Of a stretch of DNA of 64,000 nt, positions 54,697-64,000 are shown piece by piece (position 1 is the stretch's first letter; the number at the start of each line of letters is the position of its first letter). Source of the stretch: a bacterium (lineage in GTDB: Bacteria; Myxococcota; UBA727; JAUIJE01). Under the pieces are notes generated by a model. That model saw only the letters and a program-made list of their open reading frames with translations. It did not search any database and had not been told where the DNA came from. Both the position numbers and the translations under genes were made by a program. The stretch covers positions 113,434-177,433 of the forward strand of contig JAUIJE010000019.1 of the NCBI GenBank assembly GCA_030431455.1. Reading direction: 5' to 3'.

Positions 54697-54782
54697 CTAG
54701 AGCGCACCTCAAAATCATGGATGCGTGCGCTCGCCAGGGCCACGACGAGCGCCCGATCGGGCGTCTCGTCGCTGGACACTAG
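54697..54782. repeat. R2 repeat copy A: double-hairpin element bounded by CTAG
   Basis: An 86-base element beginning CTAGAGCGCACCTCAAAATC and ending GGACACTAG. The first hairpin pairs GAGCGCAC with GTGCGCTC, and the second pairs CGACGAG with CTCGTCG around GCCCGATCGGGC. The opening 20 bases are partly repeated just after it (CTAGAACACATCTCAAAATC). Copy B lies at 59218. It resembles a REP/palindromic unit. Confidence 0.8.
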
Positions 54783-54925
54783 AACACATCTCAAAATCGC
54801 CTTCGGCGCCTTCGAGCCGGGCCTTCTTCGCAGCGCATGACTTCGATGGGAGTCTGCTCGTTCGGCGTACGTGCCGCCTCACCCACCAGGTGCCGGTTTG
54901 TCCGCTGGCCCAGACGATTGAACAA

Positions 54926-55603
54926 TCAACGAAGACCCGAGAGGCACTCTTCCGGTGGCTCCCAGGTGAAGCCCGCATCAAACCAGGGGCCAGCGTCGGG
55001 TGCTTGGCATGGATTGGGCGGCGGTGGGGCCGGGAGACAGAGCGCATCCTCAACGCCGCGTTTCGGGATGGACGGTGGCGGCTGTTTGGCTGTGATGTCG
55101 GCATCAATGGCGGCCAAACTCGGGGCGATGTCGCGTTGCGCGTACTTGGGTGGCGTCTTGTAGAACGCGTGGACAAGAACATCCGTTGCCGGCGCGCACG
55201 GCGTCACCACAAGGGTCGAGAACCGCTCGAGAAAAAGCCAACCCTCGGAGTCCACGGAAGGACTGAAGGCAGACGCCACCGCAAACGCGGAGTAGACATG
55301 TCCAACGTGGAACTTCTCAGACCAGGTGCGGTGGACGAAGAAGTCCACCCTTCTGAGCTCGCGCGCATCGCAGTCAACCTCAGGAGGCAACTGGCAAGAA
55401 ACACTCTCCATGACTGAGACAAACAGCGCTTCGTAGGATTCAGCGGCTGCCCCAATGCTCTGTGTCAGCGCCGCGGGGTCAACGGGGTGTACTTCCGGGC
55501 CTTCGTCAAGCGGGCCTGGCGGTTCGGAGCCGGAGGCCCCAGCGCAGCCAGCCCCGAAACTGACGCTGGCGATGGCGACGATCAGACGAAAGCACCCTGG
55601 CAC
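54926..55603 (-). CDS. Cassette 1: predicted lipoprotein
   Basis: 225 residues from a GTG start, with signal peptide and lipobox FGAGC at about residue 20. The linker is Pro/Gly/Glu-rich. The domain has cysteines in ESVSCQLPPEVDCDARELRR, VVTPCAPATDV and two near the C-terminus. The C-terminal 40 residues are Pro-rich (LPAPPPPNPC). No family was recognised. Its start is 50 bases from element E1. It is the leftmost gene in the repeat-rich segment, and no element marks its 3' side. Confidence 0.65.
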   Translation of the reverse strand: MPGCFRLIVAIASVSFGAGCAGASGSEPPGPLDEGPEVHPVDPAALTQSIGAAAESYEALFVSVMESVSCQLPPEVDCDARELRRVDFFVHRTWSEKFHVGHVYSAFAVASAFSPSVDSEGWLFLERFSTLVVTPCAPATDVLVHAFYKTPPKYAQRDIAPSLAAIDADITAKQPPPSIPKRGVEDALCLPAPPPPNPCQAPDAGPWFDAGFTWEPPEECLSGLR

Positions 55604-55652
55604 ACGCGCAGCCTAACACACGGTGGAGCAAGCGGCGAGGGAGCCAATTGGT

Positions 55653-55933
55653 GTCCAATGCTCCAGAATAGCTGTCCGGAGCCAGGCACCGGAATCGCTT
55701 CGACCCGCATGTGGCCCGAAGGGCGCTCAACCCCAATCTTGCCCTGGCGGAGGACCCCGAGTCGCCGATGTGGCTCGCCAGGACGCACTCGCAGAGCGCC
55801 TCGTGAGCTCAAGTCGGAAGAGGCGCGTACGTGGCGCATCGTCCTGACCGGCATCTGCGCACAGCTCGTGCCGAGCTTCGCTGAGTCCGTGCGCGACCGC
55901 AGGGCCGACCCCATCGGCTATTCTCTATTGGAT
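55653..55933 (+). repeat. Element E1, full length (281 bp)
   Basis: Starts GTCCAATGCTCCAGAATAGC and ends GCTATTCTCTATTGGAT. The outer 7 bases and the AGAATAGC/GCTATTCT blocks are complementary across the element. The inner GCCAGGACGC arm is present, but its right-hand partner is partly diverged. Confidence 0.85.
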
Positions 55934-56017
55934 GACGGCGGCCGAAGCGGCACGGCACCCCTGATGTCCCATGAAGGGGGGCCGGCGTTCGAGAGCGGCC
56001 CATGCGGGATGCTTCCG

Positions 56018-56374
56018 CTATTCGGATATGAGCCAAGCGATTGCCAAGCCCGTCCCCATCTGGGCGCCCACGGCGGCGCCCACGAGGGAAAACCCGGCTG
56101 CTACGAGCCGGAGATCGACCGGACCGATGGGAAGCAGGAGGCTTCCATCTAGAGTGCCGTGTCTGGCGTACGCGACGGCCACGATGGCTGCACCAAAAAG
56201 AGCTCCGGTCACAACGGCCCCCGTACCGGCCAAGGCAACGGATAGGGCAGCCTTGGAGACCAGGTTCCATTCGGCGGCTTCTTCCTCCTGGCTGCGTTCA
56301 GGTACCGGCTCGACCGGCTGCACTGACGACGCGACGGGCCCCGAGACCAGCGCGCACAGCAACAAAACACCCAT
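56018..56374 (-). CDS. Cassette 2: small membrane protein
   Basis: 118 residues. An N-terminal signal-like segment (MGVLLLCALVSGPVASS), an acidic stretch (PERSQEEEAAEW) and then three hydrophobic segments (LSVALAGTGAVVTGALFGAA, LVAAGFSLVGAAVGAQ, GLAIAWLISE). The start at 56374 follows GGAGG. No family was recognised. It is the only gene between elements E1 and E2. Confidence 0.6.
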   Translation of the reverse strand: MGVLLLCALVSGPVASSVQPVEPVPERSQEEEAAEWNLVSKAALSVALAGTGAVVTGALFGAAIVAVAYARHGTLDGSLLLPIGPVDLRLVAAGFSLVGAAVGAQMGTGLAIAWLISE

Positions 56375-56543
56375 GGCTCCTCCGTGCGCGGTACGACGAA
56401 CCTGAGGAGGCGCCATTCAAGAAGGGAGCGGCTCTTCGGGTGTGCACGCGTCACGGCTGCTGAGGGCGGGCTGGGGATGCCTTCGGGGGCGCCAAGGCCA
56501 CAGGTTCCGCCGCTTTCAGATGCGGCAGACAATGCGCGCGTAC

Positions 56544-56664
56544 CGGAAGAGGCGCGTACGTGGCGCAGCGTCCCGGGGGAGCATCGGCGCACGACATACG
56601 CTCAGTTTTGCTCAGCTTTTGGGCAGTGCCGCAGGCCGGGTTCAGCCGCTATTCTCGATTGGAC
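56544..56664 (+). repeat. Element E2, 3' part only
   Basis: Conserved from CGGAAGAGGCGCGTACGTGG to the end CGATTGGAC. The 5' half, including the RNCCAAT end, is absent or diverged beyond recognition over the preceding 130 bases. Confidence 0.75.
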
Positions 56665-56729
56665 GCCACGACCCGAATGTGGCTGAACTCTGGTTGACGG
56701 CCCAGGTCGCCTCAGGCGAGGATCTCCCG

Positions 56730-57260
56730 ATGGAATGGAGAAACGTCCTAATTCTGGGCGCACTCATTGTGTCGGTGATCGTTGGCGCGAAGGCCTTCGA
56801 CAACGTCGGCTCCTCCGACGCCGCAGGGCGTTCGCCACCGTCGGTCAGCGCGGCGGTTCACGCGTCGGATGATGGAGATGTCCGACACCCGGACGTTCGG
56901 ACTGAAGAGAACCCGAGCGAGGTCAACGAAGGGCCACCACGCGTTGCCCAGGCTCTATATTTTCTTCCGGAGGAGATTCGGGGCCTCCACAACGATGCTC
57001 GTCGAGCCGACATGTCGATGAGTCAGTACACGTTTTACGCTTGGTCAATCGCACGGGACTCATTCAAGGACACAACGACGAACCCTTGTCGTGACTCAAT
57101 CAAAGGCACGAGGTTCAAGCAGGTCCTCTATTTTCCAGCAGAGATGCACAAGGACCTCGTCGCCGAGGCCGAGCGTCTCGGGACGAGCCGGAGTTGCATG
57201 GTCTTTGAGACGTGGCGCCGAGCGAGAACCAAGATGAAGATGTTCAATCCCTCCCCATAG
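56730..57260 (+). CDS. Cassette 3: membrane-anchored protein with two RHH-like repeats
   Basis: 176 residues. There is an N-terminal membrane anchor (VLILGALIVSVIVGAKAF) and a disordered linker. Two copies of a ribbon-helix-helix-like motif follow: ALYFLPEEIRGLHNDARRAD with SMSQYTFYAWSIAR, and VLYFPAEMHKDLVAEAERLG with TSRSCMVFETWRRAR. The second resembles the TIGR04563 family of myxobacteria. DNA binding by a membrane-tethered RHH pair is possible but unproven. The stop is 4 bases before element E3, a typical cassette arrangement. Confidence 0.65.
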   Translation: MEWRNVLILGALIVSVIVGAKAFDNVGSSDAAGRSPPSVSAAVHASDDGDVRHPDVRTEENPSEVNEGPPRVAQALYFLPEEIRGLHNDARRADMSMSQYTFYAWSIARDSFKDTTTNPCRDSIKGTRFKQVLYFPAEMHKDLVAEAERLGTSRSCMVFETWRRARTKMKMFNPSP

Positions 57261-57264
57261 GGTC

Positions 57265-57545
57265 AGCCAATGCTTCAGAATAGCTTGCGCGGAGCAAACC
57301 CGAACGTCGCGACAAGCTGATTCCGGCCGAAGGGCCTCCAACCCCTCACTGACCCTTCCGCGGAGGACCCCAAGCGCGTTTGGCCCGCCAGGACGCATTG
57401 GTAGAGCGCCTCTTGACCGCGAATCGGAAGACGCGCATACGTGGCGCAGCGTCGTGGCGGGCATACGCACGCCATAGGTGCCCAGTTTTGTTCAGCATTT
57501 GGGCGGCTCCGCAGGCCGGGGCTCAGCCGCTATTCTCTATTGGAT
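57265..57545 (+). repeat. Element E3, full length (281 bp)
   Basis: Starts AGCCAATGCTTCAGAATAGC and ends GCTATTCTCTATTGGAT. The inner arms GCCAGGACGC and GCGTCGTGGCGGGC are nearly complementary. The terminal ATTGGATGA supplies an ATG in frame with the next gene. Confidence 0.88.
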
Positions 57546-57609
57546 GACGGCGGTCGAGCCCCCCAGAACCACCGTTGAACAGACAAAAAGGAAAGGATAT
57601 CGGCGCGGA

Positions 57610-58146
57610 ATGACTCGAACCATGTGCGCCCTGTTTTTGACCGCGCTGCCGTTCCTCGCTTGTAGCACGACTGGAGAGGCGGAGCGCGGTGAGGTCGACG
57701 AAGAGCAGCCCGAGGAACGAAGCCTGTCCCGCAGAGAACGGAGCGTTCTGAAGCGCGCATCGTTTGATATGGACTGCGATGAGGACGAGCTAGAGCTCTA
57801 CAGGTTGTCCGCGCTCGTATCTGGTGCGCGCGGTTGCGGAAGACAAGCTGCGTACATCGTCCGGTGTGACATCTTCGGCATTTGCAAAGCAGTGCTCAAC
57901 AGCGACGTCGTTTCGCTGGAGGGGACTGAGCTGGGACAGGACGAGGAAGAGGTGAACAACGCCGGCCGGGCAGAACGGGCTGTAAGGACGCGGGCTGGTT
58001 TTGATCTGAGATGTGGCAGCTATCGCGTCGTTGACCTGGGCACACAGACCTACGGTGCGAGCGGATGCGGGCGAAAAGCCACGTACACCGTGGAGTGCAT
58101 GATCGATGGCTGCACCGCGTACATGGACAGCCAGTCGGTGCCGTAG
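57610..58146 (+). CDS. Cassette 4: lipoprotein with a duplicated GCG domain
   Basis: 178 residues with lipobox FLAC at about residue 18. Two homologous halves carry the pattern FDxxC...GCGRxAxYxVxC (ARGCGRQAAYIVRC and ASGCGRKATYTVEC), an arrangement seen in other myxobacterial lipoproteins. Start 57610 is chosen for the signal peptide; an in-frame ATG also occurs inside element E3 at 57544. The stop is 18 bases before E4. The function is unknown. Confidence 0.68.
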   Translation: MTRTMCALFLTALPFLACSTTGEAERGEVDEEQPEERSLSRRERSVLKRASFDMDCDEDELELYRLSALVSGARGCGRQAAYIVRCDIFGICKAVLNSDVVSLEGTELGQDEEEVNNAGRAERAVRTRAGFDLRCGSYRVVDLGTQTYGASGCGRKATYTVECMIDGCTAYMDSQSVP

Positions 58147-58164
58147 CGCCAGTATGCGGCCGTC

Positions 58165-58294
58165 AGCCAATGCTCCAGAAAAGCTGTCCGGAGCGAGCCT
58201 GGTCGTTGCTGCATCTGCGCACGATATGTTCCTGGTTTTGTGCAGCTTGTGGGCGGTGCGCAGACTGGGGCTCAGCAGCTATGCTCTATTGGGC
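58165..58294 (+). repeat. Element E4, internally deleted (130 bp)
   Basis: Both ends are kept (AGCCAATGCTCCAGAA and GCTATGCTCTATTGGGC) but about 150 internal bases are missing between GTCCGGAGCG and GCATCTGCGCAC. It therefore shows which parts are dispensable for persistence. Confidence 0.85.
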
Positions 58295-59180
58295 GGCGGA
58301 CAACCCGAATCAGCAGCAGAACCGCGACGAATCCGAAGATTGGAAGGCCCGGGCTCGGTGCCTGCTGAGCTGAACAGGAACAGCCTGGTGGGGGAAACTG
58401 CACGGTGATGGGCTCCGACCAACCGGAGAAGTCCCCATCGTTGTTAAACGCTCCGACGCGCACCTGCATCTGACTCATCGGGGGAGGGCTGATCCCGCCA
58501 GCGCAGGGACCGAGGTTGCCCACCGTGAGGTAGTTGTCGAATGATCCACCGCTCACTCGGCTATCCCAGGGGAAATCAGGGTCGGGCGGGTCTGGCTCGG
58601 TGGAGATGACCGTGAACGGTGCATCTGAGGCAAGGTGGAACTGAGCGTTTACCGTGCCAGTTGATGACGTGCAGCTGTTCCCGAAAAGGATGTCGTAGCC
58701 AGGAAGCGTATCGACGCCCGACATCGATTGGACGCGAGTGACCGACGGGGGCGCAGGGGCCCCCGACGACCGAACGACATCAACCTCGCCGAGCTCGATA
58801 CGGGTCTCGACATCGGGAACGAACGGGTCCGGCACTCGGCTGACGACTTGATAGCGCGAGCCGAGCTCGAGGGGCTCGTCTGGTTGCAACGCGACGCCTC
58901 CCCAGAGGAGGCGGTCAGTGACACCAACCTCGTTTCCGCTCGGCCCAACCAAGAGAATCTCGCCGGCAAAGGCGACACTGGTCGAGAGGTCTTCAACGCT
59001 TTTCGACATGCGTAGCCAGACGAGGCCCCGGGGCGTGATGGCCTGGGGGGACTCGAAGGCCAGCTGGACCTCGTCACGAAAGATGCAGCTGCAGGCGGCA
59101 GCCGGTCGCGCATGGTGGACGGCAGCGGCAACAACGAGAACAGCAAGCAGACGATTCAAAGTGACTCCGTTGTCGGTCAT
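58272..59180 (-). CDS. Cassette 5: secreted protein with MYXO-CTERM-like tail
   Basis: About 302 residues. A signal peptide (LLAVLVVAAAVHHARPAAAC) is followed by a beta-rich extracellular region. The C-terminus holds PPPGCSCSAQ, a hydrophobic helix (IFGFVAVLLLIRVVRR) and a short end PIEHSC. GC plus helix plus arginines fits the MYXO-CTERM sorting pattern. The last eight codons and stop lie inside element E4. An ATG at 59180 overlaps element E5, and a TTG at 59159 behind GGAG is an alternative start. The domain is unknown. Confidence 0.68.
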   Translation of the reverse strand: MTDNGVTLNRLLAVLVVAAAVHHARPAAACSCIFRDEVQLAFESPQAITPRGLVWLRMSKSVEDLSTSVAFAGEILLVGPSGNEVGVTDRLLWGGVALQPDEPLELGSRYQVVSRVPDPFVPDVETRIELGEVDVVRSSGAPAPPSVTRVQSMSGVDTLPGYDILFGNSCTSSTGTVNAQFHLASDAPFTVISTEPDPPDPDFPWDSRVSGGSFDNYLTVGNLGPCAGGISPPPMSQMQVRVGAFNNDGDFSGWSEPITVQFPPPGCSCSAQQAPSPGLPIFGFVAVLLLIRVVRRPIEHSC

Positions 59181-59479
59181 CCAATGCTCCAGAATGACTG
59201 TCCGGAGCGGTCCGAACCTAGAGCGCACCTTGAAATCAAGATGCCGTGCGCTCGCCAGGGCCACGACGAGCGCCCAATGGGCATCTCGTCGCTGGACACT
59301 AGCTAGAAGCTGATTCTGGCCCGAAGGGCCTTCAACCTCAACCGTCTCGTCCGCGGAGACTCGGAGCCGCCCCTGCGGCCGCAAGGACGCCCTGGTCGAG
59401 GGCCGCTTTAGCTCAAATGGAGGAGGTGCGTATGTGGCGCAGCATACTGGCGGGGCCCAGTAGCTATCCTCTATTGGAT
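59179..59479 (+). repeat. Element E5, with R2 insertion and 3' deletion
   Basis: Starts ATCCAATGCTCC and ends CTATCCTCTATTGGAT. An R2 copy sits between TCCGAAC and AAGCTGATTC. About 65 bases before the 3' end are missing, joining CTGGCGGGG directly to CCCAGTAGC. Confidence 0.82.
59218..59302. repeat. R2 repeat copy B, inserted in element E5
   Basis: 85 bases from CTAGAGCGCACCTTGAAATC to GGACACTAG, followed directly by a further CTAG. Uninterrupted elements read CTACAAGCTG or similar at this point, so CTAG may be a target duplication. Arms GAGCGCAC (59221) and GTGCGCTC (59246), and CGACGAG (59264) and CTCGTCG (59285), form two hairpins. Confidence 0.82.
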
Positions 59480-59719
59480 GTCACCGGTTCGCATACAAAT
59501 CGCAAGTCATTCATTCAGGCAAACCGACCCGCCGTCCGCGGGAGAGCCCGGTCATTCTGTGGTCGAATGGCTACAAACGTCGATGAGGCAAAACGAGGCT
59601 GGAGAGTCCATGGCGAGGAGGATGCATGGGCCTCACCAAACAGCTTGAGAAAGCGCGCGGGAAGGGCGACAAGCAGGGTACGCTCGGTGGAAGTTGACAG
59701 CGGAGCCCGGGAGGCCACT

Positions 59720-60406
59720 GTGAATGTGGAAGAGAAAACACGCCATGCGCTAGAGAGCACGCTGGCATTCATTGACCGCCTGCGCGACGAGCCGCACCTG
59801 CGGATCGAAAGCTTCGAAATGGTCGAGGCACCAGCACCAGACGAGCTTGATGCATTCGAGAGTGAGACAGGCCGGCCATTGCCAGCAGAGGTCCGCGCCT
59901 GTTTCGAACGCGGGATGTTTCATTGCCGCATCTCGGGAGACGAGGAGTACCATTTCGGGCAGGTCGAGTTTTCTTCCTTGGCCGCGATCAAAGACCAGCT
60001 CTCATGGTGGGGCGATCAAAGTCTCGCGGACCAGATTGAATCGGAACTCGCGGCGGAAGGAGGGGCGGACGACGATATGGAGTACAACCAGTTGCAGGTC
60101 GATCACCTACGGTATGGCATCCCGTTGTGGGCCGATGACAACACCATCGTCGTAGACTCCAGAACAGGTGCCGTCGGCCGCCACGACGGCGAGGGCGGAC
60201 CGGCCGACCGGATTTGCGATGACCTTTGTGAGTTCTTCCAACACTTCGCAGCAGCCGGTCTCTTCAACTATGGCGGCGCGAGCAAGGAACATTTTGAGGT
60301 GTACTGGGAGATCGTCAAAGAGCTGGTGCCTTTCGCAATCTCGCCACAGGAAAACAAGTGGCTGCAACATCTCGATCGTTGGTACCGCGGAGACCTCACT
60401 GCTTGA
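59720..60406 (+). CDS. Cassette 6: SMI1/KNR4-family protein
   Basis: 228 residues from a GTG with GGGAGG five bases upstream. FEMVEAPAPDELDAFESETG and RPLPAEVRACFERG are the SMI1/KNR4 opening (helix, then the LP motif), and WADDNTIVVDSRTGAVGRHD is the later beta region. The family includes immunity proteins for contact-dependent toxins and cell-wall regulators. The sequence is visibly less G+C-rich than chromosomal genes here. A 23-codon reading at 59626 with a good ribosome site may be a leader or decayed gene. The stop is 46 bases before E6. Confidence 0.75.
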   Translation: MNVEEKTRHALESTLAFIDRLRDEPHLRIESFEMVEAPAPDELDAFESETGRPLPAEVRACFERGMFHCRISGDEEYHFGQVEFSSLAAIKDQLSWWGDQSLADQIESELAAEGGADDDMEYNQLQVDHLRYGIPLWADDNTIVVDSRTGAVGRHDGEGGPADRICDDLCEFFQHFAAAGLFNYGGASKEHFEVYWEIVKELVPFAISPQENKWLQHLDRWYRGDLTA

Positions 60407-60452
60407 TGAACGTGACCGGCTCCTTGCGGCCAGTTAATCGCCTCTAGGTGTC

Positions 60453-60734
60453 ATCCAATGCTCCAGAATACCTGTCCGGAGGGCCCGGTCGTGGCCACAA
60501 GCTGATTTTGGCCCGAAGGGCCTTCGACCCCAATCGTGCCCTGGCGGAGGACCCCGCGCCGCCCCGTGGCCCGCCAGGCCGCAATCGGCTGAGCGCCCCT
60601 TTAGCTTGAATCGGAAGAGGCGCCTACCTGGCGCAGCGGCCTGGCGGGCATCCGCGAACGATATGTGCGCAGTTTTTGTTCGGCCTTTCGGACAGTCCGG
60701 CGGGCCGGTGCTCAGCAGCTATTCTCTATTGGAC
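60453..60734 (+). repeat. Element E6, full length (282 bp)
   Basis: Starts ATCCAATGCTCCAGAATACC and ends GCTATTCTCTATTGGAC. The internal GGCCCGAAGGGCC hairpin and the GCCAGG/CCTGGCGGGC arms are present. Confidence 0.88.
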
Positions 60735-61554
60735 GACGACGTCGTCGGAGCCCGAGTACTGCGAATAGGAAGAATGAACTGGCGTAGCCGCTCGCTCCGA
60801 CCTGTGAGCAACCCGACTGCTCCTCTGCGCTGACCATCCCAGATACGTCAAAATACTGGAGCTGCCCCAGGGTCGCGGTCGGTAGATGGACGGTTTGCAC
60901 GACGAGCGTCATGTCATCGACCTCGTGGGTCCAGAACTTCGCTTCCCAGACGTCGGAAGCGCTTTGATGAGCAAACGCAGGGTACGGCGCGAGCGGCTCT
61001 GATGAGTTCGTCGAAGGAATGCCCCAGAACCGCAGACCGTAGTCCGCCCATGCGTCCGAATGCTGCTGGGGTTGGACGACGAATCGAAGCTCATCCGCTT
61101 CGAGACTGTCGGCAAACCAGCCATCGCACGCATTGCTCGAGTAGTGCCGAACCCCGAGCTCTTGAATGAACACCTCAACAAGCGGGTCATCAACGGGAGC
61201 GGGGTTTGCCGACCCGGAGGATACGACAAGCGTTACCCGCGCACGGTCGGGGTCACCTACTGTCCACTGATCTCCAACCGCCGCGTCCGCCGGAACCGAA
61301 ATTGCGACGAGCCCCTCCTCCTGGAACGTGATTGTAGGCGCGTCGGTCCCCACGCTCTCTGGGGAGGGAGTCATCGTGTCGGTGGCGAACCCTCGGACCC
61401 ACCAGAGACCGCCGAGAGGCGCTTCCTCTACCTGAAAACTGCGTCTGAGGTTGGCGTCCAGGATCTGCGGCTCGAAAATCACCGGAGAGCACGGAAGCGC
61501 AGATTGGGCGAAGAGCAGACCGAATGAAAAGGCCGTTACGGTTGGGAACTGCAT
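60712..61554 (-). CDS. Cassette 7: secreted protein with MYXO-CTERM-like tail
   Basis: 280 residues. There is a signal peptide (FSFGLLFAQSALPC), a beta-rich extracellular region without recognised family, and a C-terminus of SGCSQVGASGYASS, then a hydrophobic stretch, LRRRRR and PIENSC. The GCS-helix-arginine order fits MYXO-CTERM. The final residues and stop are encoded by element E6, just as the cassette 5 protein ends in E4. The ATG at 61554 is 19 bases from element E7. Confidence 0.72.
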   Translation of the reverse strand: MQFPTVTAFSFGLLFAQSALPCSPVIFEPQILDANLRRSFQVEEAPLGGLWWVRGFATDTMTPSPESVGTDAPTITFQEEGLVAISVPADAAVGDQWTVGDPDRARVTLVVSSGSANPAPVDDPLVEVFIQELGVRHYSSNACDGWFADSLEADELRFVVQPQQHSDAWADYGLRFWGIPSTNSSEPLAPYPAFAHQSASDVWEAKFWTHEVDDMTLVVQTVHLPTATLGQLQYFDVSGMVSAEEQSGCSQVGASGYASSFFLFAVLGLRRRRRPIENSC

Positions 61555-61573
61555 CGATCGCCCTTCTGTCGTC

Positions 61574-61846
61574 GTCCAATGCTCCAGAATGAGCGGGCCC
61601 GGATGTCGCTACAGGCTGATTCTGGCCCGAAGGGCTTTCAACCACAACTCTTGCTTCCGCGGAGGACCCCGAGCCGCCCCGTGGCCCGCCAGGACGCCCT
61701 GGTAGAGCGCCTCTCTAGCTCGAATCGGAAGAGGCGCGTACGCGGCGCAGCGTCCTGGCGGGCATCTGCGCACAATATGTGCTCATCTTGGTCAGTTTGT
61801 GGACAGTGCCGTAGGCCGGGGCTCAGCAACTATTCTCTATTGGACA
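61574..61846 (+). repeat. Element E7, near full length (273 bp)
   Basis: Starts GTCCAATGCTCCAGAATGAG and ends ACTATTCTCTATTGGAC. It is slightly shortened near the 5' end (TGTCCGGAGC missing). The inner arms GCCAGGACGC and GCGTCCTGGCGGGC are perfect over ten bases. Confidence 0.88.
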
Positions 61847-61897
61847 ACGCCGAGAACAGGCCGGCACCATCTCTTTTGCGATGATAGAATCTGAATC

Positions 61898-62116
61898 ATG
61901 GGACAGATCAAGGCAACAGTGAAGGATGGCCGGTTGGTGGTCCATATGCCGACCAATCTGCCGGAAGGCCTCGAGGTGGACCTCGTCACTGACGATGACC
62001 TCGACGCGGAAAGCCGGGCTAAGCTTCACGCCGCTCTGCAGGCAAGCGCTAAAGAAGCGGAGCAAGGCTTGGGACGCCCTGCCACTGAGGTCTTGGCCTC
62101 CCTCTCCCAGGGATGA
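61898..62116 (+). CDS. Cassette 8: antitoxin-like protein
   Basis: 72 residues. The N-terminus MGQIKATVKDGRLVVHMPTN followed by LPEGLEVDLV is the beta-strand pattern of small antitoxins paired with RelE/ParE toxins. The helical C-terminus (AALQASAKEAEQGLGRPATE) would wrap the toxin. TAGAAT at 61884-61889 is a plausible -10, with the ATG nine bases later. An overlapping toxin reading begins at 62113 but is cut off after 12 codons, so the antitoxin appears orphaned. Confidence 0.7.
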   Translation: MGQIKATVKDGRLVVHMPTNLPEGLEVDLVTDDDLDAESRAKLHAALQASAKEAEQGLGRPATEVLASLSQG

Positions 62117-62151
62117 GCCTCCCAGTCAGAGTCACCCCTCGCGCAGAGTAG
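62113..62151 (+). pseudogene. Truncated RelE/ParE-like toxin start
   Basis: ATG overlaps the antitoxin stop (ATGA), the normal coupling in such operons. The reading MSLPVRVTPRAE resembles the first strand of RelE/ParE toxins. It then hits TAG where sequence of element E8 begins, so the rest of the toxin was lost at that junction. Confidence 0.6.
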
Positions 62152-62182
62152 GCTGGGGCTCATCAGCTGTTCTCTATTGGAT
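62147..62182 (+). repeat. Element E8, last 36 bp only
   Basis: GAGTAGGCTGGGGCTCATCA and the terminal TCTCTATTGGAT match the 3' end of the element. Everything upstream is missing and replaced by the toxin start. The stop of the Thg1-like gene lies within it. Confidence 0.82.
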
Positions 62183-63028
62183 GACGTCCTCTTGCGAATC
62201 GTCGAGGACCTCGCCCTCGTCCATGCCTAAAACCGGGCTGGCCCCGCGAAACAGGACGTCGGCACGGTTCGTCACTTGTCCGAACGGCGGCATCTCGAGT
62301 TCCTGAATGGAAGACCGCTCGTACTCGTGGTCCGGGTTTGCGTGTGCATGGTGCTTCGCAGGTAGGTTCGCCAGCTCCTCTGGTGAGAAACGCCGCTTCT
62401 CTGTCTTTCGCATCACGAAGGTGCCGCGTCTGAAGTGTGGCGGAAAGTCGTTCCAGTTCACGCCCAGCTCAAGAAGCTTCGCCTGTTTCTCCTTGCCCGA
62501 AAGACCCATGGTCTGGTCGTGACCGAGATGGGCGTGCGCCGCCATGCTGATGCTGTTCTTGGTCGCGTCACGTTCACGCCACAGGAATGTGTTGGCCGCC
62601 TCGGTTTCGTTCGGAACCGTCCAGACCCGGCAGTCAAACACGGGGAAGCGGTCCGCGTGGGAAGGGATTTCGTCCGCAAGAAAGCGGTTGAACGCGACCG
62701 AAGCGAGGGATGCCAGGACAGAGACCATCTTCTGCACCCGGCCGTCAAAAAACACCTGGCTCTTGTGAGATGTTGAGTGCCAGAGAAGGCTGATTTCGTC
62801 TGACTGGGTGTACCCAACGAGAGCAGACGACTCAGCGACGAGCAGCTTCGTAGTCTCGACCATCATCCGAGACATGCGGGGGTCATACGGACGCTCAAGG
62901 TCCTTGGTAAAGTTGGAGAAGGAGCGACCGTCGAGCCGGGCCAGAATAGGGAGCAAGGGGAGGAACCGACGGTCTGCCTCCGCGCCCTCGTAGAGCTTCA
63001 TCCTGTCGCCAAAGGCTGTCTTGTCCAT
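62174..63028 (-). CDS. Cassette 9: Thg1-like tRNA 3'-5' nucleotidyltransferase
   Basis: 284 residues of the tRNA-His guanylyltransferase/Thg1-like family, which adds nucleotides to the 5' end of tRNAs. LARLDGRSFSNFTKDLERPY carries the first catalytic Asp and YTQSDEISLLW the DE pair. NSISMAAHAHLG follows as in the family. The downstream 90 residues (FRRGTFVMRKTEKRRFSPEE) are a variable extension. The last codons (DVIQ, then TAG) come from element E8. The kinase gene is 3 bases upstream, so they form one operon. Bacterial Thg1-like proteins repair 5'-truncated tRNAs. Confidence 0.85.
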   Translation of the reverse strand: MDKTAFGDRMKLYEGAEADRRFLPLLPILARLDGRSFSNFTKDLERPYDPRMSRMMVETTKLLVAESSALVGYTQSDEISLLWHSTSHKSQVFFDGRVQKMVSVLASLASVAFNRFLADEIPSHADRFPVFDCRVWTVPNETEAANTFLWRERDATKNSISMAAHAHLGHDQTMGLSGKEKQAKLLELGVNWNDFPPHFRRGTFVMRKTEKRRFSPEELANLPAKHHAHANPDHEYERSSIQELEMPPFGQVTNRADVLFRGASPVLGMDEGEVLDDSQEDVIQ

Positions 63029-63031
63029 TCT

Positions 63032-63496
63032 CTACTCTTCCCACTCCGAAAGCTCGAACTGGTCGTTTGCGATTCTAGCGAACTGAAGCGAGTCAAAACC
63101 TTCATCGAACTTGGGGAGTTCAAGTTCGTTGCGCCGGCCGCGCACGCCGGCCTCTGGAACGCGTTCCGCCGCTGGGCGGCCTGCATTGCGACGAAGGCAG
63201 TCGTCGATTCGCGACTCAAAGAAGATGCCGGAGATAGTGAAGCCCGCCCGCTGAGCGACATCAATGTAGAGACGGCGTTCTTCTCGCGTCACATTGGTGT
63301 TGTCAGAACAGAACGAAATGCCGGCACCACAGCAAGCGGCGAGAACCACCCGGACACGGTTGGACGTCCGCAGCATGTCGCGATTGATGCGGACATGCGT
63401 GTTCACCAGGTGCCTTCGAAAGTACGTGGACTTGCCCGAAGCGGGGATGCCCATCAAGAGAACGCAGCTTGGTTTCGTTTCGTCTTCCTTCGTCAT
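63032..63496 (-). CDS. Cassette 9: polynucleotide kinase-like P-loop protein
   Basis: 154 residues. The P-loop GIPASGKST is followed by VRINRDMLRTS and FCSDNTNVTREERRLYIDVA, the pattern of T4 Pnk-type 5'-kinases (NVTxxxR and an RxD-like region). It would phosphorylate 5'-OH RNA or DNA ends. It is the first gene of a two-gene operon with the Thg1-like gene, suggesting end-healing before nucleotide addition. The ATG at 63496 is used; a TTG inside element E9 is an alternative. Confidence 0.8.
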   Translation of the reverse strand: MTKEDETKPSCVLLMGIPASGKSTYFRRHLVNTHVRINRDMLRTSNRVRVVLAACCGAGISFCSDNTNVTREERRLYIDVAQRAGFTISGIFFESRIDDCLRRNAGRPAAERVPEAGVRGRRNELELPKFDEGFDSLQFARIANDQFELSEWEE

Positions 63497-63517
63497 GCCG
63501 CGGTCCAAGAGGACGTC

Positions 63518-63798
63518 ATCCAATGCTCCAGAATAGATGTCCGGAGCGGTCCGGATGTAGCTATAAGCTGATTCTGGCCGGAAGGGCCTTCAACCACAAC
63601 TGTCGCTTCCGCGCACGACCGCGAGCCGCCCTTGTGGCCCGCCAGGACGCACTGGGAGAGCGCCTCTCTAGCGCGAATCGGAAGAGGCGCGTACGTGGCG
63701 CAGCATCCTGGCAGGCATCCGCGCACAATATGTGCTCATCTTGTTCAGTTTGTGGACGGTGCCGTAGGCCGCGGCTCAGCAGCTATTCTCTATTGGAC
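63518..63798 (+). repeat. Element E9, full length (281 bp)
   Basis: Starts ATCCAATGCTCCAGAATAGA and ends GCTATTCTCTATTGGAC. The CCCGCCAGGACGC arm faces GCATCCTGGCAGGC, and GAGCGCCTCT faces AGAGGCGCG nested inside. GCAC/GTGC forms another small hairpin near 63722. Confidence 0.88.
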
Positions 63799-63872: not shown

Positions 63873-64000
63873 TGTCTGGGCTTGCCCCGATTTAGTGGAC
63901 GGTTTGTCTATGCAGCCAAGGCTGGCCGCTTGAAGTTTAGCTCAAACCCTACCGGGCTTTCGTAGCCGATGCTCGAGTGGCGCCGGTAGGGGTTGTAGAA
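63873..64000. mobile_element. IS3-family insertion sequence, left end
   Basis: TGTCTGGGCTTGCCCCGATT is a plausible terminal repeat, followed 35 bases later by the C-terminus of an IS3-type transposase on the minus strand. The rest of the element lies beyond the window edge. Confidence 0.65.
63908..64000 (-). CDS. IS3-family transposase (OrfB) C-terminus, partial
   Basis: The minus strand from the window edge reads FYNPYRRHSSIGYESPVGFE then LNFKRPALAA and TAG. The YNPxRRHSSIGYxSP block is the diagnostic end of the DDE integrase core of IS3-family OrfB. The start lies outside the window. Confidence 0.85.
   Translation of the reverse strand, partial: FYNPYRRHSSIGYESPVGFELNFKRPALAA

What the first reader, a model, noticed from the sequence alone, without database searches (positions are those of the whole stretch)
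54783..63798. Array of single-gene cassettes separated by ~281-bp elements in one orientation
Seen directly: nine copies or fragments of one element, all pointing the same way, alternate with one gene or a gene pair each. Genes lie on both strands, so the elements are not part of a gene family. The gene content (lipoproteins, orphan antitoxin, SMI1/KNR4, RNA-repair pair, MYXO-CTERM-like proteins) is typical of exchangeable accessory genes. Dispersed MITEs would be expected in both orientations. The uniform orientation suggests site-specific assembly of cassettes as in integrons, but with elements far longer than classical attC sites.
Basis: partly seen in the sequence, partly recalled or inferred. 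Interest (0 to 1): 0.93.

Follow-up and report, generated by a model that had tools for sequence, protein, structure and literature searches.

The report
Integron run by a patch-less integrase
This bacterial chromosome carries about 35 cassettes in two stretches, separated by roughly 280-base DNA sites that all face one way, with one recombinase gene at the end of one stretch; that enzyme is predicted to move the cassettes as in an integron, although it lacks the protein patch that marks known integron integrases.

Summary
Seven two-ended elements and two fragments lie in the window; a second contig of the same genome carries 27 more in the same orientation, ending next to one tyrosine recombinase gene. 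The elements behave as integron attC sites: they share a covarying predicted fold, and the two ends of each cassette are reverse-complementary (24 of 26 exact in C23; shuffle mean 6.3, 0 of 100,000 as high). The last cassette abuts an attI-like junction that recurs in four other genomes.

What is unusual is the enzyme. It belongs to a clade separate from IntI, has no IntI-specific insert (0 of 18 rows, against 6 of 6 IntI) and carries its own C-terminal extension. Members sit beside such cassettes in 5 of 6 genomes examined, in two phyla; for G012 and G033 the evidence is one cassette pair. The best account is an integron whose folded sites are likely recombined without the I2 helix thought to enable that reaction. 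Activity, strand and circles are untested. Independent assortment of the element's two halves is unexplained.

The parts
55655..55931 (+). attC-like element 1 (degraded right end), most distal copy
56018..56416 (-). cassette ORF, 132 aa, no Pfam match
56536..56662 (+). right-hand fragment of an element (left end lost)
   Evidence: (D2, D5)
56442..57260 (+). cassette ORF, 272 aa from the first start codon (it overlaps the fragment; true start likely later), no Pfam match
57267..57543 (+). attC-like element
57478..58146 (+). cassette ORF, no Pfam match (mechanical ORF overlaps the element; true start likely later)
58167..58292 (+). attC-like element truncated to 126 bp
58272..59384 (-). cassette ORF, no Pfam match (mechanical ORF runs into both neighbouring elements)
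59181..59477 (+). attC-like element with a 64-nt repeat inside whose other copy is at 54697-54760
   Evidence: (D11)
59417..60406 (+). cassette ORF with a weak SMI1/KNR4 match (17.2 bits, cut-off 25.4)
60455..60732 (+). attC-like element
60712..61554 (-). cassette ORF, only a sub-cut-off Pfam match (16.8 bits, cut-off 27)
61576..61843 (+). attC-like element (left end damaged); its left core matches its own cassette start exactly
61898..62116 (+). cassette ORF, 72 aa, no Pfam match
62135..62180 (+). right-end fragment of an element; the bases after its ATTGG are the start of the next cassette
   Evidence: (D2)
62174..63028 (-). cassette gene: Thg1 (tRNA-His guanylyltransferase) family
   Evidence: PF04446, 1.2e-30
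63032..63523 (-). cassette gene: AAA_33 family, paired with Thg1
   Evidence: PF13671, 3e-16
63520..63796 (+). attC-like element; 13 of 13 nt of inverted match between its left core and the start of its own cassette at 62176
63929..64000 (-). contig end; the translated fragment looks like the end of an IS3-type transposase (motif recalled; no Pfam match for 24 aa)

Best explanation
The window holds the decayed, likely oldest, part of what is probably one chromosomal cassette array: its 274-290 bp elements are predicted to fold like integron attC sites, its other stretch ends beside an attI-like junction and a tyrosine recombinase of a non-IntI clade, and that enzyme likely inserts and excises the cassettes as an integron integrase does. 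Shown: one orientation; exact cores in two contigs only; each cassette's two ends reverse-complementary beyond the core (ATTGG NN GAC ... GTC NN CCAAT); covariation that supports a shared fold; a junction CCAAT|GCAATTATGGACGAC next to the recombinase, similar in four other genomes; a promoter-like match there that points into the array; no IntI-specific insert in the enzyme. Inferred: reading from the recombinase end (minus strand), a cassette is a gene plus the element after it; the enzyme would act on the folded single strand at the R-like stem and join near A/TTGG of the element to attI; new cassettes enter at attI, so the window copies are the oldest. Because the I2 helix is missing, and no extrahelical base breaks the 9-10 bp L-like stem, second-strand exchange would have to be avoided by some other feature, perhaps the C-terminal extension or replication.
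For: Array and orientation; the core is absent from the 96 other genomes of a 97-genome search of relatives. Recombinase at the attI end; R172, K197, H262, R265, H288 and Y297 (tyrosine-recombinase catalytic set, roles recalled) are invariant in 31 of 31 aligned members. Own-cassette complementarity in C23: 24 of 26 exact over 5 nt, against 6 of 27 for the element's own right end; shuffle mean 6.3, 0 of 100,000. Pirellulaceae array (G195): 4 of 5 exact over 8 nt, the fifth 6 of 8. Fold: 59 pairs, 8 with changes on both sides; 98.2% of cells paired against 95.7% in shuffles; covariation score 0.095 against 0.050 (0 of 500) and at most 0.031 for slid structures. attI-like junctions of 5 genomes: mean identity 0.419 against 0.264 (0 of 20,000). 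The only sigma-70-like match in the 2.5 kb around it lies there and points into the array (shuffles 0.1). Element ends decay away from the recombinase, taking the window as the far stretch (Spearman 0.76). The clade sits beside such cassettes in 5 of 6 genomes. G000 has no match over the integron-integrase cut-off. Best fold match is IntI4, 2a3v.
Against: No activity, circle or strain comparison could be tested. The two halves of the element assort independently: correlation between neighbouring windows falls from 0.83 in the left half through about 0.5 to 0.12 at column 120 and returns to 0.9; the right half tracks the cassette to its right (r 0.98, p 0.009, a contrast between two cassette families; no signal within the nine closest copies), the left half does not. 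A canonical integron would move the whole element with its gene. Four-gamete conflicts are commonest there (0.61) but common everywhere (0.24-0.59). G049 has the recombinase but no detectable cassette pair. G502 also has an IntI over the cut-off 1.48 Mb away. In G033 and G012 one pair each is weak alone, since G502 gave three and G195 two pairs that look like chance, one of them 249 bp from the integrase. Genes point both ways, and ten cassettes look non-coding (my reading). The contig join C27-C23 is inferred.
Confidence: 0.8

Rival explanations
1. The sites are ordinary attC sites that a classical IntI elsewhere (lost from this assembly, or acting in another host) recombines; the neighbouring patch-less recombinase is a bystander.
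For: G502 carries an IntI over the cut-off (339.9 bits) 1.48 Mb from its array. The G000 assembly is 96.87% complete.
Against: G000, G012, G033, G049 and G195 have no match over the IntI cut-off. The same recombinase clade sits beside cassettes in 5 of 6 genomes of two phyla.
Confidence: 0.1
2. The recombinase works on double-stranded sites like XerC/D, exchanging both strands; the element's fold serves something else, such as transcript ends. (This would still be a cassette array moved by this enzyme, so it overlaps the best explanation in part.)
For: No I2 helix; close to Xer-type enzymes in family scores. The published view ties I2 to single-strand recombination, though direct proof is said to be lacking (PMC7790495, passages).
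Against: A double-strand site gives no evident reason for each cassette's two ends to be complementary, or for covarying stems across the element.
Confidence: 0.25
3. A MITE or other dispersed repeat that happened to accumulate between genes.
For: Imperfect inverted terminal repeats, and some copies are fragments.
Against: All 30 exact core copies face one way and lie in two places only; cassette ends match as inverted, gene-specific sequences, which transposition does not produce; a recombinase and an attI-like junction lie at one end.
Confidence: 0.02

Closest known systems
Sedentary chromosomal integron (IntI, attI, attC cassette array)
   Same: Array of mostly short cassettes in fixed site orientation; sites predicted to fold; R-like core (ATTGGNN here, partly GTTRRRY in the Pirellulaceae relative); cassette ends complementary; attI-like junction and promoter-like match beside a tyrosine recombinase; far end decayed.
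   Different: Recombinase lies outside the IntI clade and has no IntI-specific insert; extra C-terminal extension; sites of 274-290 bp here, 132-203 bp in G195 (longer than the usual range, recalled); uninterrupted L-like stem; genes in both directions.
XerC/XerD/XerA recombinases
   Same: Same fold and catalytic residues, no I2 insert.
   Different: Separate clade in the tree; stands beside cassette arrays; C-terminal extension.
Tyrosine recombinases next to IS91-family transposases in Alphaproteobacteria
   Same: 35-40% identity, no IntI insert in the three aligned.
   Different: Paired with an IS91 transposase; separate clade. No cassette array was looked for beside them.

Membership tests
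Integron (classical, IntI-based) | Integrase carries the IntI-specific additional domain (I2 helix) | tested here: not met
   Insert in 6 of 6 IntI rows, 0 of 18 family rows (two of the 18 near-identical)
Integron (classical, IntI-based) | Integrase falls in the IntI clade | tested here: not met
   Family clade 99/93, IntI clade 100/100, separate; 201.8 bits against the TIGR02249 cut-off of 265
Integron (classical, IntI-based) | Tyrosine recombinase gene at one end of the array | tested here: met
   C23:24604-25836, 527 bp after the last element and 57 bp after the last cassette
Integron (classical, IntI-based) | Sites that fold by R''-L''...L'-R' pairing | tested here: met
   Prediction and covariation
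Integron (classical, IntI-based) | Core site GTTRRRY / RYYYAAC | tested here: inconclusive
   GTTRRRY at some sites of G195 and G502; ATTGGNN in G000
Integron (classical, IntI-based) | Site left core complementary to the start of its own cassette (rule recalled) | tested here: met
   24 of 26 in C23, 2 of 6 in the decayed window part; 4 of 5 in G195
Integron (classical, IntI-based) | attI beside the integrase | tested here: met
   Conserved junction in 5 genomes, 0.419 against 0.264; sequence evidence only
Integron (classical, IntI-based) | Cassette promoter Pc | tested here: inconclusive
   One promoter-like match between integrase end and junction, pointing into the array
Integron (classical, IntI-based) | Integrase-driven excision and integration of circular cassettes | not testable with these tools
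   No reads, strains or assays
MITE | Dispersed copies in both orientations | tested here: not met
   30 of 30 exact core copies in one orientation, two places
MITE | Direct target-site duplications | not tested
   Flanks were compared only as inverted matches

The most novel reading that the evidence does not exclude
A second lineage of integrons, spanning two bacterial phyla, in which a Xer-like recombinase without the I2 helix recombines large folded cassette sites; folded-site cassette capture therefore either predates I2 or arose twice, with the C-terminal extension taking over the task of I2.
Probability: 0.6. Interest if true: 0.93.

Novelty: new variant of a known kind. Interest (0 to 1): 0.87.

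Why it matters
[quoted passage not shown] the authors add that direct proof of causality is not available (PMC7790495, passages). A related paper calls the origin a chicken-and-egg paradox, because it is unclear how I2 could be selected without attC sites (PMC4792948, passages). An attC-type array paired with an enzyme without I2 makes that question directly testable. It also means that tools that recognise integrases by the IntI-specific domain, as IntegronFinder does (PMC9668308, passage), would not recognise this enzyme; I did not run such a tool. I found no report of this class in seven searches of the held open-access library; subscription papers and preprints are not held.

Tried and rejected
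Dispersed-repeat reading: rejected by orientation and confinement. A further hit at C26:32651 is an 18-nt exact match to the left core without the rest of the element; left open. Rfam: no match in the window or in C23:1-40000. Element cores in viral contigs: none for either pattern tried. A simple attC finder with an uninterrupted L-stem rule found 0 sites beside four IntI of the same phylum, 1 in G195, and 0 in G012, G033 and G502; it was too strict to serve as a control, so no classical array was compared. A fold test of the ten repeat cassettes on the + strand gave z = -0.61, so no structure is claimed. A Mantel test within the nine closest repeat cassettes had no signal of any kind. PADLOC: only weak matches in 3 of 10 proteins. 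The C-terminal extension was not folded or searched alone, so nothing is claimed on its fold family.
Full report
What was checked. Repeat search and alignment confirm seven two-ended elements and two right-end fragments in the window, all on the + strand. The window is contig C27:113434-177433 of a 7.72 Mb, 28-contig genome and stops at the contig end. The left core CCAATGCTCCAGAAT occurs 30 times exactly, 30 of 30 on the + strand: 5 in C27 and 25 near the start of contig C23; with up to 2 mismatches there are 38 forward and 5 reverse hits. With up to 3 mismatches C23 holds 27 two-ended elements of 274-290 bp between 122 and 24076. Both stretches lie at contig ends and point the same way, so they are probably one array; no overlap proves it.

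Cassette rule. The left core of an element typically reads GTCNNCCAAT and the right core ATTGGNNGAC, with NN variable. In C23 the left core is the exact reverse complement, over the 5 bases beyond ATTGG, of the right core of the previous element in 24 of 26 cases, that is, of the other end of the same cassette; it matches its own element's right core in 6 of 27. Shuffling gives a mean of 6.3 and a maximum of 15; 0 of 100,000 reach 24. The two misses are the two most distal C23 cassettes. In the window 2 of 6 are exact, two more differ by one base in seven, and two match at only 3 of 7. In C23 the exact match runs 6-15 nt beyond ATTGG in those 24 cassettes. This is the signature of cassettes that travel as units with their site; the rule for classical integrons is recalled, while the core GTTRRRY and cleavage after its first base are from PMC8876359 (passage).

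Which end is attI. After the last element comes one more cassette (C23:24077-24546) that ends CCTGTCGCCCAAT and runs straight into GCAATTATGGACGACTTTGC, 57 bp before the end of the recombinase gene. Equivalent junctions exist in G033, G195, G502 and G012; over 26 nt their mean pairwise identity is 0.419 against 0.264 (sd 0.029) for random sites after YAAY in the same loci, 0 of 20,000. I chose the G195 and G502 junctions by eye, and part of the conservation may be a promoter: the only sigma-70-like match in 2.5 kb (shuffles 0.1) lies here, pointing into the array. So the array reads from the recombinase, on the minus strand. By my reading, 9 of 14 coding cassettes of C23 lie on that strand and 5 on the other. 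The far end is decayed: identity of element ends to the consensus falls with distance if the window is placed beyond C23 (Spearman 0.76).

Fold. One element folds at -75.1 kcal/mol on the + strand (z -4.45) and -73.3 on the - strand (z -3.67). Thirty elements (27 of C23, 3 of the 7 two-ended window copies) share 59 predicted pairs, 8 with changes on both sides; 98.2% of cells pair against 95.7% in shuffles, covariation score 0.095 against 0.050, 0 of 500; slid structures reach at most 0.031. The layout is an R-like stem, a loop of 5 against 2 nt, and a 10-bp L-like stem without an extrahelical base, then two arms. The Pirellulaceae sites have unrelated sequence but the same plan by eye: 10-bp stem, 5 against 3 nt, 9-bp stem (with one mismatch in one of six).

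Relatives. P0001-like proteins at E at most 1e-55 occur in 4 of 195 genomes of this phylum (own genome included) and 2 of 392 of the Pirellulaceae phylum. G195 has six sites of 132-203 bp beside the gene and 4 of 5 exact cassette matches over 8 nt. G502 has a cassette with an 11-nt match and a site 90.6% identical over 128 bp to one of G195, while BLAST found nothing but such sites in common between the compared stretches. Sequence carrying an IS110-family transposase gene interrupts that site right after its L-like stem. G012 has two copies of a ~144-nt repeat (92-96%) and one pair; G033 has one pair; G049 has none. Pairs that look like chance also appear: three in G502, one of them 249 bp from the integrase, and two in G195 more than 11 kb away, so single pairs are weak.

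What does not fit. Linkage along the element breaks near GGA|GGACCCCGAGC: the correlation of neighbouring windows is 0.83, then about 0.5, then 0.17 and 0.12 at columns 112 and 120, then up to 0.93 (25 of 27 elements). The right part goes with the cassette to its right: one right-arm type, sorted by eye, precedes all 9 internal copies of a repeated cassette and, at the last element, its tenth copy. The left arm is not detectably tied to either gene (r 0.23, p 0.07; r 0.17, p 0.20). Four-gamete conflicts peak there but occur throughout. Homologous exchange between elements is my guess.

Verdict. It works like an integron. It is not a member of the IntI-defined family, because two defining features were tested and not met. 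I file it as a new variant of a known kind.

Noticed in passing
L031/L032 (C23): cassettes g6, g8, g10, g13, g18, g20, g22, g23, g24, g27: Ten copies (the nine internal ones 85-95% alike) of a ~465-bp cassette with no consistent ORF and flat codon-position GC, the tenth at attI; likely non-coding. A second such pair is g4/g19 (88%). No conserved fold found (z -0.61).
   Followed up: partly
C23 elements, centre 'GGCGGAGGACCCCGAGC': The two halves of the element assort independently with a break in a ~12-bp centre; only the right half tracks the cassette to its right.
   Followed up: partly
L065:5652 region (C26:32651, minus strand): Isolated 18-nt match to the element's left core, 3.7 kb from another tyrosine recombinase gene.
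   Followed up: partly
window 54697-54760 and 59218-59281: A 64-nt repeat (86%) outside the array recurs inside the element at 59181.
   Followed up: no
L161:16825-18173 (G502): Sequence with an IS110-family transposase gene interrupts an attC-like site right after its L-like stem; IS1111-attC elements with this habit are recalled from the literature.
   Followed up: partly
L168, L169, L172: Tyrosine recombinases next to IS91 transposases on alphaproteobacterial plasmids are relatives without the IntI insert.
   Followed up: partly
window 62174-63523: Cassette carrying a Thg1-family gene with an AAA_33 gene, a possible RNA-repair pair, in an intact cassette (13-nt end match).
   Followed up: no
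G502:C1:1099022-1099984: An IntI over the family cut-off (339.9 bits) lies in the same planctomycete genome as a patch-less integron.
   Followed up: no
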